Positions 36,262 through 42,082 of a stretch of 64,000 nt of DNA are shown piece after piece (position 1 is the stretch's first letter; every line of letters starts with the position of its first letter). The position numbers and the translations under genes are program-made. This DNA is from Natronomonas marina (GTDB taxonomy: Archaea > Halobacteriota > Halobacteria > Halobacteriales > Haloarculaceae): assembly GCF_024298905.1 (NCBI RefSeq), contig NZ_CP101154.1, forward strand, positions 2,480,001-2,544,000, in the 5' to 3' direction. The notes below the pieces were generated by a model. It did no database searches, was not told the DNA's origin, and saw only the letters and a list, made by a program, of their open reading frames with translations.

Positions 36262-36551
36262 CAGCCATCCCCCTCCTCGTCCTTCTTTGCGAGCATGACC
36301 GCGCCGTCAAGTGCGGCGTCGAGCACGACGGCGATGGTGATGAAGGCCACGAGGAAGCCCTCGCTGGCGATGTCACCGGCGTCGAGGTTGAACATCGCGT
36401 AGCCGATAGAGCGTGTCACCGAGCCGTCGGCGAACCCCTCGGCAGTGCCGAACCCCGAGGTCAGGAAGACGGCCGCGAGGAAACCGAAAAGTCCCACAGC
36501 GAGGATCCCCGTGAGCTTGCTCCCCCCGTAGAGGCGCGGACGGGTCGTCAC
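36261..36551 (-). CDS. nuoJ: NADH-quinone oxidoreductase subunit J, second half (NuoJ2)
   Basis: 96 aa with GTG start at 36551, overlapping the end of the first NuoJ gene as GTGA. Two helices: KLTGILAVGLFGFLAAVFL and GFLVAFITIAVVLDAALDGAVML. Haloarchaea split NuoJ into two short proteins; this one covers the C-terminal half. The frame is open farther upstream only as antisense or overlap of the previous gene. Confidence 0.88.
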   Translation of the reverse strand: MTTRPRLYGGSKLTGILAVGLFGFLAAVFLTSGFGTAEGFADGSVTRSIGYAMFNLDAGDIASEGFLVAFITIAVVLDAALDGAVMLAKKDEEGDG

Positions 36552-36826
36552 GGCGCCACCTCCGTCTCCGGCCCGCTCTCGCGGCGGACCAGCATGACCG
36601 CGAAGGTGATGAGGATCAGTACCCCGCCGACGTACACGAGTACCTGCATCGCGGCCAGAAACTCGGCGCTCAACATCACGTAGTGGACCGCGACGGACAG
36701 CAGCGCCACGCCCAAGAGTAGCGCCGAGTGCCACACGTCACGGGCCAAGACGACGCCCAGGCTCGCCCCGACGGTCACGAGGGCGAACAGCAGGAACGCC
36801 AGTAACTGGTACGGTACTACAGCCAT
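36548..36826 (-). CDS. nuoJ: NADH-quinone oxidoreductase subunit J, first half (NuoJ1)
   Basis: 92 aa with three helices, including HSALLLGVALLSVAVHYVML and the NuoJ signature AAMQVLVYVGGVLILITFAVML. It is the first gene of the second nuo block. In other haloarchaea nuoI immediately precedes it; here nuoI is at 41621-42082, 4.8 kb away, so this block needs its own promoter or read-through. Confidence 0.93.
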   Translation of the reverse strand: MAVVPYQLLAFLLFALVTVGASLGVVLARDVWHSALLLGVALLSVAVHYVMLSAEFLAAMQVLVYVGGVLILITFAVMLVRRESGPETEVAP

Positions 36827-36910
36827 TGTTTACCTCTGCATCCGGGTTCCCTTTGAAGATTTCCTTTGCGTTCCACGCCGGCGACGCCAGCAGGCCGGGC
36901 CAGCCCCGCT

Positions 36911-37318
36911 TCAGGACTCCAGGCCCGTCTCCTGCAGCGTGACCCAGACGACTCCCTCGGGTGCGGCCTCGTCGGCCCGGAACAACGCCGTACTGACCCG
37001 GCCCGTCTCGCCCGCCGCCGTCGACTGCCGCTCCTCGTACCGCACCACGGCGTGGTCGTCCAGCAGCGCGACCGTCTCTATCTCCCGGACGTCGATGTCG
37101 AAGTCCTCGCCGGCGGTGCGGCCGTGCGACTCCGCGATCCCGTCGACGAGCGCCTCGTGGTCGACCCGCTCGCCGGCCGTCGTGACCATCTCGAACTCGG
37201 GGGCGAGCGCCCGCTCGAGGCGGGAGAGATCGCTCCGCGGGGCCGCCCCGGCGAACCACTCGACGAAGAACTCGTGGAGGCCCGTTATCTCGGCCCGACA
37301 CGCCGTGGGAGTCAGCAT
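36911..37318 (-). CDS. DUF4440/SnoaL-like (NTF2-fold) protein
   Basis: 135 aa. The cone-shaped NTF2-like fold is suggested by FVEWFAGAAPRSDLSRLERALAPEFEMVTT, LVDGIAESHG and the strand-rich half VREIETVALLDDHAVVRYEERQ, ending with WVTLQE. DUF4440 proteins are small enzymes or ligand-binding proteins of varied role. It sits between nuoJ1 and the IS region, 84 bp upstream of nuoJ1 on the same strand, inside the segment that splits the nuo genes. Confidence 0.78.
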   Translation of the reverse strand: MLTPTACRAEITGLHEFFVEWFAGAAPRSDLSRLERALAPEFEMVTTAGERVDHEALVDGIAESHGRTAGEDFDIDVREIETVALLDDHAVVRYEERQSTAAGETGRVSTALFRADEAAPEGVVWVTLQETGLES

Positions 37319-37358
37319 ACTCCCCCTACGACGCCGACCAGTAAATCGTTGGGTGTGG

Positions 37359-37574
37359 CTACTCGAGCAGTCCCAGGTCCTCGGCGACGAAGTCCGCGAT
37401 TTGGTCCATCACCGCGGGGTCGACCTCCGCGACCGCCTCGCCGTCGTGGAGTTGCTCGTTGTGCCGCGCGACGGCGTCCTCGACATCCGAAAACGGGACC
37501 TTCGTGCGCGTGTCACACTCGCTGCAGACGACCGGGATGTCCGGCAGGCCCTCGTCGTCGTCGGTGTCAGTCAT
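37359..37574 (-). CDS. Small CxxC protein, function unknown
   Basis: 71 aa from the ATG at 37574. An acidic N-terminus (TDTDDDEGLPDIPVV) is followed by CSECDTRTKVPFSDVEDAV, a single CxxC knuckle, and a helical acidic C-terminus (VMDQIADFVAEDLGLLE). One CxxC alone would need a partner or dimer to bind zinc. A truncated paralogue covering the first ~27 codons and the promoter lies at 40732-40842. It is 40 bp upstream of the DUF4440 gene. Confidence 0.72.
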   Translation of the reverse strand: MTDTDDDEGLPDIPVVCSECDTRTKVPFSDVEDAVARHNEQLHDGEAVAEVDPAVMDQIADFVAEDLGLLE

Positions 37575-37639
37575 GCCTCGACCTGTGGCGGCCGTTGTAA
37601 AAACCGGTGCGGTCGACGTATCCGGCCAAACGGTCTCGT

Positions 37640-37686
37640 GATCCTCAAGTAACGGTAGGAGGGGTTGACCTCCTCCCACGGCTGTA
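37640..37686 (-). mobile_element. Putative right end of an IS200/IS605-type remnant (split by IS630)
   Basis: Contains the palindromes GGAGG-GGTTGA-CCTCC (37657-37672 region) and the left arm CCCACGGC of a longer hairpin whose right arm GCCGTGGG lies at 38844-38851, beyond the IS630 element. Removing the IS630 element and one TA restores CCCACGGC-TGTAAC-GCCGTGGG. Palindromes of this kind are typical of haloarchaeal tnpB-element ends. No tnpA or tnpB gene remains here. The exact outer boundary is uncertain. Confidence 0.4.
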
Positions 37687-38840
37687 GTGATTAGCGGATC
37701 TTATTGAGGAATCCACTGAGGTGATTGTCAATCCACGATGCAGCGAAGCTCAGTTGCTCGGTCAGTTCTTCGAACAGATCGTCAAGGAGTGTTCGGTACT
37801 CGTCTTCATCTTCGACAATCAGCGGTGATGACTCCCACTTGAGACTTTTCCAGACTGGCTCGATTGGATTGAGATGCGGCGATCCAACCGGAAGGAATAC
37901 GAGATCAATTCCTAGTTCGTGGGCACGCTTGCGAGTGTACTTGCAAATGTGAGATGAGAAGTTATCTAAAACGAGCAGAATCCGGGTACGCGGATTCTGC
38001 TCGCGGATCGTCTCGAAGCACTCACAGATCTGTTCTTTCTCCTGGTTCGGCGGAAACGACAGTACACTCTCACCGTTGAGTGCATAGAACCCGGCCGCTG
38101 GTGTGTCGATTTTCACCAGCGGCCGGGTGATGTGTGGGTCATCAACTGTGTACATCCGCTGAGAATTGTCCCACGGCTGTGGATGTGACAGGTCGAAAAA
38201 CCCGATGACTGTGCCACCATCTGTTCGAATATCCTCGTCACGGTCCCAGTCTTCGTCGTCTTGATCTTTCTCTCGTTTGTTGTGAGGCTGATCGTCGGCA
38301 TCCTCGTCGAACGCGTACTCGACGCGTTCGTCGAGAATCCCTTCGGCGTCGTCTGGTCGATCAGGACGTTTCGTCCGTGGAATAGCGTACGAGAGGCCGA
38401 GGTTGTCCAGAAACGTCGGTAGATAGTGTGGATGATACTCGATATTGAATTCCTCGTTGAGGAGATGCTGAATCTCCTGTTTTTTCCAGGGCTGGCCCTC
38501 ACGGAGTCGCTCGATCAGTCGCTGCTGTTCGGCCTCGCCGAGCTTCGGGGGCCTGCCGCCCCCGAAGTTCGGCGTGAGTTTGCCCAGTCCTCCTTCATTC
38601 CAGCGTTCGACCCAGTTGTCAGCTGTCCCCTCTGATCGCCCAACGTCATCAGCGGCTTCAGCGAGCGTCGCTCCCTTGTATAGCCGTTTGATGAACACGA
38701 GCCGTTCGTGTTGCTTCACGTCGTCAGTTTCCGTGAGCAGTCTATCCAGGTCTTCCTCGCTCAGGTGGCGTACAACTTCTTTCTCACGGCCAGTCATTAC
38801 ATCGAAAAGACGGTTTTCCTCAATAACTTCCCCGAATGAC
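37687..38840 (-). mobile_element. IS630-family insertion sequence (1154 bp)
   Basis: Terminal inverted repeats of 25 bp at 37687-37711 and 38816-38840 match at 20 of 25 positions (inner part TTATTGAGGAA is identical). The element is flanked by TA on both sides (37685-37686 and 38841-38842), the target duplication of IS630/Tc1-type elements. It encodes one intact transposase. The insertion lies in the loop of a palindrome of an older element. Confidence 0.85.
37691..38797 (-). CDS. IS630-family transposase
   Basis: 368 aa, uninterrupted. The N-terminal HTH part contains YKGATLAEAADDVGRSEGTADNW (helix-turn-helix), followed by a second winged-helix-like region with GGGRPPKLGEAEQQRL. The DDE catalytic residues appear in GFFDLSHP, LVLDNFSSH and PHLNPIEPVWKSLK. 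Its stop codon lies inside the terminal inverted repeat. It has lower GC than flanking core genes. The element looks recently active because the ORF and both ends are intact. Confidence 0.93.
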   Translation of the reverse strand: MTGREKEVVRHLSEEDLDRLLTETDDVKQHERLVFIKRLYKGATLAEAADDVGRSEGTADNWVERWNEGGLGKLTPNFGGGRPPKLGEAEQQRLIERLREGQPWKKQEIQHLLNEEFNIEYHPHYLPTFLDNLGLSYAIPRTKRPDRPDDAEGILDERVEYAFDEDADDQPHNKREKDQDDEDWDRDEDIRTDGGTVIGFFDLSHPQPWDNSQRMYTVDDPHITRPLVKIDTPAAGFYALNGESVLSFPPNQEKEQICECFETIREQNPRTRILLVLDNFSSHICKYTRKRAHELGIDLVFLPVGSPHLNPIEPVWKSLKWESSPLIVEDEDEYRTLLDDLFEELTEQLSFAASWIDNHLSGFLNKIR

Positions 38841-38842
38841 TA

Positions 38843-39345
38843 ACGCCGTGGGATTCCCACGTTGGGAGTTTCAGGTTTGCAGTCTCGTCGGCATGACGGG
38901 ACTGCTGGCGGGGCCAAGCCGCCGTTACTCCTATCCCGGCATGGGATTCAGAGGTACCGTGTGTCGGAATCCACAGCCAGCGGCCCCGAAGGGGATTCCT
39001 TCAGATTCAGACGTAGTGTGGCCCGAATCCCGATATTATCCGTTTATTCGGGCGGCTCGACCGCCTCGGTACGGCCTTTTTACGCCCTACTCAACTATAA
39101 AACTCCGGGGCTGCGCACCCTCGTGGATAGATTCCCAGTTGTCGGCTTCATCCCTACCCGTGAACGGGTGGGCTTTCGCTTCGCTACCGCTGTAAAACCA
39201 AGGTCTATGATTGGTACACCCGTCGTCGGCAGTCAGTATGAAGACGGTCCGAACCCAGTTGACGGCAAGACCAGAGCTCCCCCAAGCCACAGACGGAGCT
39301 CGCACTGCGGGTCTGCCTTCTTACAGAAACATCGGTAAGTCTTGG
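38843..39345 (-). mobile_element. Non-coding remnant, likely derived from an IS200/IS605-type element
   Basis: About 500 bp with no convincing gene. It begins with the other half of the palindrome split by the IS630 element (GCCGTGGG, then GTGGGATTCCCAC) and contains further short hairpins, for example CCCGTGAACGGG near 39161-39172. Open frames on both strands are short and have unusual composition. The arrangement resembles a non-autonomous palindrome-associated element or the 3' RNA region of a tnpB element whose gene is lost. Confirmation needs comparison with other genomes. Confidence 0.35.
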
Positions 39346-39435
39346 GTGTGGCGCAGTTGCTCTGAAATCAATGAAACCTCTCGGAAAGAACGATGATAGT
39401 TTATGTTACTCCGCATCTATTAATTAGGAATTAAA

Positions 39436-39450
39436 TTTAAGTATATAAAA
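39436..39450 (+). promoter_or_regulatory. AT-rich promoter (TATA box) of the Tat-secreted protein gene
   Basis: TTTAAGTATATAAAA sits 17-30 nt before the ATG at 39466, in a strongly AT-rich stretch unlike the rest of the window. The spacing predicts a leaderless mRNA. Confidence 0.6.
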
Positions 39451-39465
39451 TAAGATTATACAGAT

Positions 39466-40095
39466 ATGGCAGATGAAGATATTCCGAAGGAGACCGACAG
39501 AAATGACAAGTCTGGGTCTGTGTCCATCGTTAGTCAAGTGACCCGTCGAAAAAGTATAAAAGCACTCGGCAACCTTGGGTTAGGAACTGCATTTCTGACC
39601 GGCAATACAGTCGCGGATTCTAATTCGGGCACCACAGGTGGAAACGAGAAACAGATGAAACAAAAGGACGTTCCGTCTGTCGAAGAGTCCAATGTGGTCT
39701 ATATCCCACCTGAAGAGGTCGAATGGCCGGACGACAACATGGTCAGTTCTGACGGTCCGGTTTCCTCATCTACGCGTGTCTCGAAAGTGAATTCGAGGTG
39801 CCTTGGTGGTCAAATAGCCCGTATTGGTGTTGAAGTATGTCCGAACGATGGTGATTTTGAGGTTTCCGTTTCGCTATTAGGAGTCTTAGTGGGGAACTAT
39901 TCGTTCGATGGAGATGTATATAAACACACCACTAGCTGGCAAGGCGCAGTTCCGGGGGCCCCCGGTATATTTCAGAGAGTTGATCTGACATTCTACTTCG
40001 ATAGCGTCACCGATGTGTCTGTACAAGCCGACTTCTGCTACTACTCCAATCTCCAGTGGTACTGCACGGAATACCCAAAAACCAAACTCAGTTAG
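39466..40095 (+). CDS. Tat-exported protein with four cysteines, function unknown
   Basis: 209 aa. The twin-arginine signal is VTRRKSIKALGNLGLG (Arg27-Arg28), with cleavage likely around residue 50. The mature part has a linker to ~105, then a compact region with Cys112, 125, 191 and 200 that could form two disulfides, with strand-like segments (FEVSVSLLGVLVGNYSF; VDLTFYFDSVTDVSVQADF). It is clearly AT-richer than the core genes and lies between a mobile-element remnant and a structured non-coding stretch. Halocins are Tat-exported and Cys-rich, but I see no homology; a halocin-like role is only a hypothesis. Confidence 0.75.
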   Translation: MADEDIPKETDRNDKSGSVSIVSQVTRRKSIKALGNLGLGTAFLTGNTVADSNSGTTGGNEKQMKQKDVPSVEESNVVYIPPEEVEWPDDNMVSSDGPVSSSTRVSKVNSRCLGGQIARIGVEVCPNDGDFEVSVSLLGVLVGNYSFDGDVYKHTTSWQGAVPGAPGIFQRVDLTFYFDSVTDVSVQADFCYYSNLQWYCTEYPKTKLS

Positions 40096-40112
40096 GAAGT
40101 AATGTGACGAAA

Positions 40113-40535
40113 ATGCCAACAAAACATCCGCTTAACTATACGATGGTAAATCGGCAAGAGCTCATTTACATAGCCGCCGGTGGAGTACTCGGATGGGTAG
40201 CAATCTATTCTTATAACGCGGTATATGGCTCGGGGAGCTCGGTCTACGTATCGATCAGCCTTATCGGGAGCGCTGTCGCCGGGTTCCTCGCCGCAAGAGG
40301 CGAGAGAAACCCCCAACGGGTCGGCGTCGGCGCAGCACTCGTTGGGACGTTCCCAATCCTGTATTTGATGTACGATAGCGCGATTCAGATGGCGGGTGGA
40401 CTCATTACGGACTCGGCTCCCTGGGTGTTCCTCGTCTTCGGTGTCCTGATGGTAGCGATTCTTACGTTCCAAGCGGTTGGAGGACTCATCTGCGGTAAGG
40501 CTGGCGGGTGGCTCGAAAAACGAATCGCATCCTGA
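40113..40535 (+). CDS. Small membrane protein (DUF5518-like), paired with the Tat-exported protein
   Basis: 140 aa from the ATG at 40113; a GTG at 40104 and an ATG at 40143 are alternatives. Four hydrophobic segments: LIYIAAGGVLGWVAIYSY, VYVSISLIGSAVAGFLA, VGVGAALVGTFPILYLMY and WVFLVFGVLMVAILTFQAVGGL. The AGFLAARGERNPQRVGVGAALVG pattern recalls haloarchaeal DUF5518-type proteins. It starts 17 bp after the preceding gene's stop, so the two are probably one transcript. It could protect against or anchor the upstream protein; this is inference. Confidence 0.65.
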   Translation: MPTKHPLNYTMVNRQELIYIAAGGVLGWVAIYSYNAVYGSGSSVYVSISLIGSAVAGFLAARGERNPQRVGVGAALVGTFPILYLMYDSAIQMAGGLITDSAPWVFLVFGVLMVAILTFQAVGGLICGKAGGWLEKRIAS

Positions 40536-40710
40536 TCGATACCGACTGGTCGGAGATACCGATAATGAACGGCGTTCGCGGGTGGTTGAATACTCTTCCA
40601 CTCGGCAACCACCAAGCTGAAACGACTGATACAGCGGGAAGAACCCGCAAGCGGACGAAGAGGGTCTAGCGGTTTGCTCGAAAGAACGCCGTAGGCTGTT
40701 TCGACATGAC
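40536..40710. other. Structured non-coding stretch
   Basis: No gene is visible. Inverted repeats are GGTGGTTG...CAACCACC (around 40582-40615) and GCGGG-AAGAA-CCCGC (around 40637-40651). The composition is intermediate between the AT-rich pair and the GC-rich core. It may be the distal end of the acquired segment or the remains of a mobile element. Confidence 0.4.
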
Positions 40711-40733
40711 GAACGATGTCTGCGACATCGTTC
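40711..40733. repeat. Perfect hairpin at the edge of the accessory segment
   Basis: GAACGATGTC-TGC-GACATCGTTC: a 10-bp perfect stem with a 3-nt loop. It overlaps the stop of the truncated CxxC gene copy and marks the junction between acquired DNA and core sequence. Confidence 0.75.
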
Positions 40734-40842
40734 AAATCACACCGGACGACCGGGAGGAGCGCGGGACCTTCGTGCGCGTGTCACACTCGGTGCAGACGAC
40801 CGGGATGTCCGGCAGGCCCTCGGCGTCGTCGGCGCTGGTCAT
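40732..40842 (-). pseudogene. Truncated paralogue of the small CxxC protein
   Basis: 36-codon frame from the ATG at 40842. Its first ~27 codons match the protein at 37359-37574 almost residue for residue (EGLPDIPVVC-x-ECDTRTKVP) and then continue with an unrelated RSSRSSGVI and a stop. About 50 bp of the upstream region is also similar. The C-terminal half is missing where the acquired DNA begins (about 40762). It is most likely a tandem paralogue cut by insertion. Confidence 0.75.
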
Positions 40843-40899
40843 GGCCCCGAGTGGGGTCGCCTCCGTGAAAACCGCCGCGGTTCGTGGCGTCCGGACCGG

Positions 40900-41352
40900 C
40901 TACACCTCGACGACGTTGCCGCAGTCGGGACAGGTCAGCGTCACGTCTTCGCCGTCGACGTCGGTGACGTGGTAGTCCGCACCGCACGCCCGGCAGGGCA
41001 ACTTCGTGCGCGTCTCGCCCATCCCCTGCGGGGCGCCCATCGCCAGCGCACGGACGCGGTCGTCGCCGTCGTTTCTGCCCTCCTGGTACTCGCCGGGGGC
41101 GAACCGGACGACCTCGTCGGGGCCGACCTCGTGGGTGTCCTCCGGCGTCTCGAAGGTCGCCGTCCCCTCCATCACGTAGAAGACCTCCTCCTGATCCATG
41201 TGGGTGTGAATCCCGCCGGAGAAGGAGTCGCCGGGTTCGAGTTCGTAGTAGTTCAGCGCCATGTCCGACAGCCCAAGCGGGCCCGTGGCGTGTTTCTGTA
41301 CGTCCGCGACGCGCGGGTCGTTCTCCAGGTCGTCGATTGCTACCTTCTCCAT
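40900..41352 (-). CDS. Cupin protein with C-terminal zinc ribbon
   Basis: 150 aa from the ATG at 41352; the longer open frame upstream is non-coding. The cupin domain shows GIHTHMDQEEVFYVMEGTATF (motif 1: G-x-H-x-H-x-E) and VRFAPGEYQEGRNDGDDRVRALAMG (motif 2). The C-terminal 40 residues form a zinc ribbon with CRACGADYHV and LTCPDCGNVVEV. Substrate unknown. It is the gene next to nuoI, with the repeat element in between. Confidence 0.87.
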   Translation of the reverse strand: MEKVAIDDLENDPRVADVQKHATGPLGLSDMALNYYELEPGDSFSGGIHTHMDQEEVFYVMEGTATFETPEDTHEVGPDEVVRFAPGEYQEGRNDGDDRVRALAMGAPQGMGETRTKLPCRACGADYHVTDVDGEDVTLTCPDCGNVVEV

Positions 41353-41399
41353 GGCGAACGGTGGATGTGCGGCACACGGAGTAAATTTTGGTGTCGGAG

Positions 41400-41557
41400 G
41401 TGGGACACTGCGACAGGAACGACGAACCACCGGAGCATCCGCCGAGGGAGCGAAGCGACCGAGGCGGTTCGCGGCGGCGAGGCGACGGAGGTCGCCGAGC
41501 CGCCGTAGCGCGCGACGACTAACGCGCTCGAACGAAGTGAGAGCGCGGCTGGAGGAG
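41400..41557. repeat. GC-rich palindromic intergenic stretch
   Basis: Contains stacked short inverted repeats such as GGCGAC-GGAG-GTCGCC (near 41485-41500) and GCGCTC...GAGCGC (near 41524-41546). No open frame here has protein-like composition. It lies between the cupin promoter and repeat copy B. Similar GCGAAGCG-type hairpins occur near 63010-63030. Confidence 0.5.
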
Positions 41558-41620
41558 CGCGCGCATATTTTCCCCACGTTTTTGCCGACCCCCGAAGGGG
41601 GTCGTGTAAAAAGTGGGTGT
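41558..41620 (-). repeat. Stop-abutting intergenic element, copy B (one hairpin)
   Basis: On the minus strand it begins at the first base after the nuoI TAG. The outer blocks 41596-41620 (25 bases) and 41558-41586 (29 bases) are identical to those of copy A at 23831-23956. The middle is a single perfect hairpin GACCCCC-TTC-GGGGGTC (41587-41603). The T5 tract of the first block lies 8 bases after the stop codon and could end transcription. Confidence 0.8.
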
Positions 41621-42082
41621 CTATTGGTAGTCCACTTCGCCCTCGCCCTCGCCGATCCAGGCGCCGCGGTCGGGTTCGCGCGAGGCGAGCGGGTCGATGT
41701 CCTTGTACCAGGGGACGTTCTTCAGTTCCTCCATGTTGTAGGCCAGATCGTCCTTGGTGTCGCCGGTGAACTCGAAGTTCTGGGTCAGGAGGATGGCGTC
41801 GACGGGGCAGACCTCCTCGCAGAGCCGGCAGTAGATGCACTGCCCGATGTGGAGGTTGTACTGCTCGCCGTTGCGCTGTTCGTCGGTGACGATCTGGATG
41901 GTGTCGTTCGGGCAGACGTTCTCGCACTGCCGACACCAGATGCACCGTTCCTGTGAGAACTTGTGGACGCCGCGGAACCGCGGGGAGACGTCGGGCGTCT
42001 CCTCGGGGTACTGGACGGTGAACTTCTCGCCGTCCAGAGCGTGTTTCATCGTCGTTGCCATCGATTTGAGCATTCCAATCAT
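41621..42082 (-). CDS. nuoI: NADH-quinone oxidoreductase subunit I
   Basis: 153 aa from the ATG at 42082. Two [4Fe-4S] ferredoxin motifs: CIWCRQCENVCP and CIYCRLCEEVCP. It carries clusters N6a/N6b between the peripheral and membrane arms. It is the last gene of the first nuo block; its expected next gene nuoJ is displaced to 36826. An intergenic element starts directly after its stop. Confidence 0.95.
   Translation of the reverse strand: MIGMLKSMATTMKHALDGEKFTVQYPEETPDVSPRFRGVHKFSQERCIWCRQCENVCPNDTIQIVTDEQRNGEQYNLHIGQCIYCRLCEEVCPVDAILLTQNFEFTGDTKDDLAYNMEELKNVPWYKDIDPLASREPDRGAWIGEGEGEVDYQ

What the first reader, a model, noticed from the sequence alone, without database searches (positions are those of the whole stretch)
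39466..40535. AT-rich gene pair: Tat-exported four-cysteine protein plus small membrane protein
The pair has a strong AT-rich promoter, a Tat signal (Arg27-Arg28), four cysteines in the mature part, and a downstream membrane protein 17 bp later. It is bounded by mobile-element remains on one side and a perfect hairpin on the other. Secreted protein plus adjacent membrane protein is the layout expected for a toxin/immunity (halocin-like) or surface-antigen cassette. No homology to a known halocin is claimed.
Basis: inference. Interest (0 to 1): 0.6.

Follow-up and report, generated by a model that had tools for sequence, protein, structure and literature searches.

The report
Putative haloarchaeal secreted-toxin and immunity pair
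This is a small, foreign-looking two-gene cassette in a salt-loving archaeon, one gene for a freely exported disulfide-rich protein and one for a membrane protein, and because the same two families sit together at unrelated places in other haloarchaeal genomes it is probably an undescribed weapon-and-self-protection pair, though no activity has been shown.

Summary
Window 39466-40095(+) encodes a 209-aa Tat-exported, unanchored protein with four cysteines; 17 bp downstream, 40113-40535(+) encodes a 140-aa multi-TM member of Pfam DUF5518. The pair is AT-rich (48/55% GC against 68%), sits next to an IS630 element in a variable gap of the nuo operon, and is absent from 19 congeners.

The exported protein matches no family library, but profile searches recovered relatives in nine other haloarchaea, including Haloferax mediterranei ATCC 33500 (WP_137685691.1, 'hypothetical'). 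Most are AT-rich; each sits at a different site. In 9 of 10 loci a DUF5518 gene lies within 1.5 kb, in several relative orientations (chance about 5e-21). Similarity of exported protein and partner correlates over eight adjacent pairs (Mantel p 0.0006; 0.03 with all ten). In two decayed units the exported gene is broken and DUF5518 intact.

Best reading: a new halocin-like secreted toxin with membrane immunity protein (about 0.5). Rivals: export/maturation partner, or secreted signal and receptor. The window protein is the most divergent member (leave-one-out 14.8 bits; shuffles at most 6.6). No activity, target or structural relative is known; no held paper mentions DUF5518.

The parts
39437..39450 (+). 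Putative TATA element, spaced for a leaderless start at 39466
   Evidence: sequence; inference
39466..40095 (+). Exported protein (putative toxin), 209 aa: Tat signal ~1-50, low-confidence linker ~51-109, C-terminal all-beta domain ~110-209 with C112, C125, C191, C200
   Evidence: AF2 model (8 strands, pLDDT about 54-81 by block over 110-209); relatives; leave-one-out
40113..40535 (+). Membrane protein, 140 aa, DUF5518 (PF17647), putative immunity protein
   Evidence: E 1.6e-6, above gathering cut-off
37494..37613 (.). Direct repeat copy 1, inside the 5' part of the complete zinc-finger-like gene (37359-37679, -)
   Evidence: 84% over 121 bp
40762..40881 (.). Direct repeat copy 2: truncated 5' copy of the same gene beyond the cassette
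   Evidence: reading frame shown
37691..38797 (-). IS630-family transposase flanking the cassette
38840..39195 (.). Repeated segment with two other 99% copies in the genome
40581..40613 (+). Hairpin downstream of the pair: 8-bp perfect stem, 17-nt loop, no T-run

Best explanation
A two-gene, horizontally acquired antagonism cassette. The first gene makes a Tat-exported protein that is cleaved after the signal and released: a poorly ordered linker followed by a compact beta domain of about 100 residues, probably with two cross-strand disulfides (C112-C125, C191-C200). It is predicted to act on the envelope of related haloarchaea lacking the matching partner. The second gene, a multi-TM DUF5518 protein, stays in the producer's membrane and protects it. 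Shown: both genes, the export signal by sequence, the two families, recurrent linkage at different sites, correlated divergence, AT-rich and patchy occurrence. Inferred: release, disulfide pairing, toxicity, target, immunity.
For: (1) Linkage: 9 of 10 loci have DUF5518 within 1.5 kb; chance about 5e-21 given 3-8 copies per genome. Orders differ: same strand, exported gene first (window, G429, G163); same strand, DUF5518 first (G327); divergent (G184, G181, G102, G420). (2) The G420 member was found at E 0.006 by its exported sequence alone and then proved to adjoin DUF5518 (E 1e-12). (3) Similarity matrices correlate: Spearman 0.67, p 0.0006 over eight adjacent pairs; 0.36, p 0.03 over ten. 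(4) Decay: the G102 exported frame is split while DUF5518 is intact; G163 has a second unit with a remnant (E 4e-4) and an intact DUF5518. (5) Patchy: absent from 19 congeners, 3 of 146 genomes of its family, about 7 of 391 in the class sample. (6) Cysteine motifs C-L-x(n)-G-[IV]-[DE]-[VA]-C and [DE]-x-C-x-[YW]-x(n)-C shared with G429, G041 and others. (7) No surface anchor or lipobox seen.
Against: No activity data; no similarity to a known halocin in the libraries. Two loci weaken strict pairing: G041 has no adjacent DUF5518 (a paired-type copy lies on another contig, but is closest to the G184 partner), and in H. mediterranei the nearby DUF5518 is 1.5 kb away across an IS fragment and of another type, so perhaps not cognate. 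Most DUF5518 copies have no such neighbour. The window protein itself is the most divergent member (leave-one-out E 0.005). Small exported proteins with membrane partners can have other roles.
Confidence: 0.5

Rival explanations
1. The DUF5518 protein is a dedicated membrane helper for export, folding, processing or retention of the exported protein, which has a non-toxic role.
For: Close linkage in several orientations and correlated divergence fit any physically interacting pair.
Against: Intact DUF5518 genes persist beside broken exported genes (G102, second unit of G163), and an unlinked paired-type copy exists in G041, neither expected of a pure helper; patchy, island-like spread fits conflict genes better.
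Confidence: 0.22
2. A secreted signal (pheromone-like) and its membrane receptor, for example in strain recognition or mating.
For: Secreted ligand + cognate membrane protein + co-divergence also fits.
Against: No regulator or signalling domain is consistently adjacent; DUF5518 is a short membrane protein without a soluble domain; the decay pattern favours immunity.
Confidence: 0.12
3. A virus- or plasmid-related accessory such as superinfection exclusion or a decoy surface factor.
For: AT-rich, near IS elements, one member on a plasmid.
Against: No member in phage records or viral contigs with the queries tried; no PADLOC match; no anchor to the cell surface.
Confidence: 0.08
4. No functional link: both genes are merely common passengers of AT-rich islands.
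For: DUF5518 is multi-copy; many copies of both lie in AT-rich islands.
Against: 9 of 10 within 1.5 kb against 0.3-0.7% expected per locus; correlated divergence. Clustering of passengers in islands is not modelled, so the true chance is higher than that figure.
Confidence: 0.05

Closest known systems
Halocin C8 (HalC8/HalI)
   Same: Haloarchaeal secreted precursor with an active C-terminal fragment (PMC12893001); cysteine-bearing, with immunity encoded at the same locus (own knowledge).
   Different: HalC8 immunity is part of the same preprotein (own knowledge); here a separate multi-TM DUF5518 protein. No NCBIfam or Pfam match.
Halocin H4 / HmHapP (HFX_0892) of Haloferax mediterranei
   Same: Secreted haloarchaeal precursors active on other haloarchaea (PMC12893001). 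H. mediterranei also carries a member of the present family on pHME505.
   Different: HmHapP activity lies in N-terminal helices, the present family has an all-beta C-terminal domain; the sequences of H4 and HmHapP could not be compared here. The sections of the paper that were read name no membrane immunity partner.
Lactococcin 972-type bacteriocins (bacterial)
   Same: Small secreted beta-sandwich protein with multi-TM immunity machinery (from memory: a lead only).
   Different: Its target, lipid II, is absent from archaea; no sequence relation was tested.
Pfam DUF5518 (PF17647)
   Same: The membrane partner is a member by the curated cut-off.
   Different: The family has no described function; most copies stand without such a partner, many beside core genes.

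Membership tests
Pfam DUF5518 (membrane protein) | hmmscan score above the gathering cut-off over most of the model | tested here: met
   28.6 bits against 27, positions 4-116 of 116
The exported-protein family defined here | Mature-domain profile similarity with the window protein left out of the model | tested here: met
   14.8 bits, E 0.005 at Z 5000, best of 500 shuffles 6.6; modest, other members 1e-6 to 1e-29
The exported-protein family defined here | DUF5518 gene in the immediate neighbourhood | tested here: met
   17 bp downstream; 9 of 10 loci overall
Halocin (functional class) | Secreted by a haloarchaeon | tested here: inconclusive
   Tat signal and predicted cleavage site by sequence only; secretion not measured
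Halocin (functional class) | Inhibits growth of other haloarchaea | not testable with these tools
   needs a supernatant or purified-protein assay
Halocin C8 family | Sequence match to a curated HalC8-type model | tested here: inconclusive
   no Pfam or NCBIfam match even at E 10, but whether the libraries hold such a model was not checked
Surface-anchored haloarchaeal protein | PGF-CTERM-type tail or Tat lipobox | tested here: not met
   read directly from the sequence: no cysteine at the signal's end, no C-terminal TM segment
Immunity protein (functional class) | Protects a cell from the cognate toxin | not testable with these tools
   needs a genetic test

The most novel reading that the evidence does not exclude
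One branch of DUF5518 is a large, unrecognised set of haloarchaeal membrane immunity proteins, and the exported proteins are a new class of disulfide-stapled beta-domain halocins, spreading as compact two-gene cassettes that also leave orphan immunity genes behind.
Probability: 0.3. Interest if true: 0.75.

Novelty: new variant of a known kind. Interest (0 to 1): 0.55.

Why it matters
Few archaeal protein toxins have an identified immunity protein (own knowledge). This gives a defined, testable candidate pair, proposes a first function for part of the uncharacterised family DUF5518, and places one member in Haloferax mediterranei, a genetically tractable strain whose inhibitory activity is known not to be explained by halocin H4 or HmHapP alone (PMC12893001).

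Tried and rejected
No match for the exported protein in Pfam, NCBIfam, PHROGs or PADLOC or convincingly among PDB sequences (best E 0.5). P0001 by tblastn in plasmids and phages, and by pattern scans in viral and genome contigs: nothing. Weak hits were mostly shared Tat signals and were dropped (e.g. L003, L005, L006); G157 and G098 hits were not supported by context. Fold comparisons gave no convincing relative: Foldseek no E below 0.001; VIA-align best Z 8.2 (window model) and 6.9 (G429 model), both to human FAIM N-terminal domain, within the range the tool calls common. No Rfam match. The first DUF5518 tree had three rows in a wrong frame and was redone: paired copies do not form one clade (4 label changes) but are clustered (0 of 500 shuffles as low), 8 of 9 in one supported half. 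In one search the cupin coordinates were out of frame; cupin-like similarity in three congeners still showed by the shared DNA. Halocin H4 (plasmid record) could not be fetched. The 2019 mBio survey of archaeal toxins is not held.

Full report
WHAT IS THERE. The window is chromosome C1 of a haloarchaeal genome (G000:C1:2480001-2544000). The exported protein has Arg27-Arg28 in a Tat-type signal, a plausible cleavage after Ala50, and four cysteines (112, 125, 191, 200). GC is 48% and 55% in a window of 68%.

SETTING. The cassette lies between nuoI (41621-42079) and nuoJ (36548-36826) of the nuo operon, together with a cupin-like gene, a small zinc-finger-like gene, a SnoaL-like gene and an IS630 element. 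In nine congeners examined the stretch next to nuoJ holds other or fewer genes and never this pair; in two of these loci (L145, L147) nuoI was not found in the stretch fetched, so the gap was seen only in part. A 121-bp direct repeat (84%) flanks IS630 + repeat segment + pair: the 5' part of the zinc-finger-like gene is present again, truncated, beyond the pair. The G420 pair is flanked in the same way by a truncated and a complete copy of a GNAT gene (299 bp, 90%). The divergence of the copies suggests that the extra copy came in with the foreign DNA (inference).

RELATIVES. A class-wide search with the window protein gave one convincing hit, G184 (E 3e-6, 203-aa frame). From there, iterated profiles of the mature part found G181, G327 (one intact and one decayed copy), G102 (frame split in two), G041, G429, G420 and G163, and tblastn found Haloferax mediterranei ATCC 33500 plasmid pHME505, WP_137685691.1 (E 8e-6). 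Identity to the reference row is about 11-38% in the alignments made. With each member left out of its own model, the others score E 1e-6 to 1e-29; the window protein is the weakest at 14.8 bits, E 0.005 for 5000 sequences, against a best of 6.6 bits in 500 shuffles of itself. Its four cysteines fall on the two cysteine motifs shared by G429, G041 and others.

THE PAIRING. In the window, G429 and G163 the DUF5518 gene follows the exported gene on the same strand; in G327 it precedes it; in G184, G181, G102 and G420 the genes diverge; in H. mediterranei it is 1.5 kb away across an IS fragment; in G041 it is not adjacent. All partners of the eight adjacent pairs pass the Pfam cut-off; the H. mediterranei one was identified with a profile built here. 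With 3-8 DUF5518 genes per genome (the H. mediterranei count is assumed) the chance of 9 in 10 within 1.5 kb is about 5e-21 under uniform placement. The partner was not used to find the members. Conversely, most DUF5518 copies lack such a neighbour and many lie beside core genes, so the dependence is one-sided, as for an effector that needs a protector. Similarity matrices correlate over the eight adjacent pairs (Spearman 0.67, p 0.0006) and less over all ten (0.36, p 0.03); leaving out the two loci without a directly adjacent partner was decided after seeing the matrix.

DECAY. In G102 the exported frame is split while the DUF5518 gene is open. In G163 a second unit keeps an intact DUF5518 but only a fragment of the exported gene (E 4e-4). 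In G041 a paired-type DUF5518 close to that of G184 lies alone on another contig. This is the asymmetry expected if a toxin can be lost freely and an immunity gene cannot; the numbers are small. Against it, G327 holds a decayed exported fragment without its own DUF5518 next to it.

STRUCTURE. AlphaFold2 with 9 and 11 family sequences gives low confidence up to about residue 110 and an eight-stranded all-beta C-terminal domain: block means about 54-81 for the window protein and about 77-87 for most of the domain in the G429 relative. No solved structure is a convincing relative. No catalytic motif is apparent (inference). The poorly ordered stretch carries a TPDWF-like motif in several relatives but not in the window protein; a pro-region is possible (inference).

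INTERPRETATION. Freely exported, disulfide-bearing small domain; one-sided dependence on a membrane protein; co-divergence; patchy, AT-rich, often IS-associated occurrence at different sites; effector decay with retained partner. Together these fit a secreted toxin with membrane immunity best. It works like a halocin/immunity pair as far as anatomy goes, but membership in any known halocin family was not found and activity was not tested. A helper or receptor role for DUF5518 remains possible. No paper in the held library mentions DUF5518 or PF17647.

Noticed in passing
window 37494-37613 and 40762-40881; L118 4739-5035 and 6566-6864: In two unrelated genomes the cassette is flanked by a truncated 5' copy and a complete copy of a host gene (zinc-finger-like gene, GNAT gene), 84-90% alike: a possible common mode of arrival.
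   Followed up: partly
L100 7746-8585 (-): G327 carries, near its two members of the family, another Tat-exported protein (279 aa) with a hydrophobic cysteine-bearing segment and no family match; it has a halocin-like look.
   Followed up: partly
window 38840-39195: A roughly 356-bp segment with two other 99% copies in the genome, without an obvious transposase; possibly a non-autonomous element.
   Followed up: partly
window 36826-41621: The nuoI-nuoJ gap of the nuo operon holds different cargo genes in different species of the genus.
   Followed up: partly
L174 1408-1920 (-): Orphan DUF5518 of G041, closest to the paired copy of G184: a candidate orphan immunity gene.
   Followed up: partly
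L159 9109-9594 (-): A DUF5518 gene in H. mediterranei pHME505 that is missing from the gene table of the plasmid collection; a near-identical copy lies in G327 (L084) without an exported partner of this family.
   Followed up: partly
L128 8117-8495: Tandem direct repeats of about 91 bp just downstream of the double cassette in G163.
   Followed up: no
L066/L074 and L064/L068: DUF5518 copies in tandem beside conserved core genes (ribosomal protein S2 region in G327): a separate, apparently housekeeping branch of the family.
   Followed up: no
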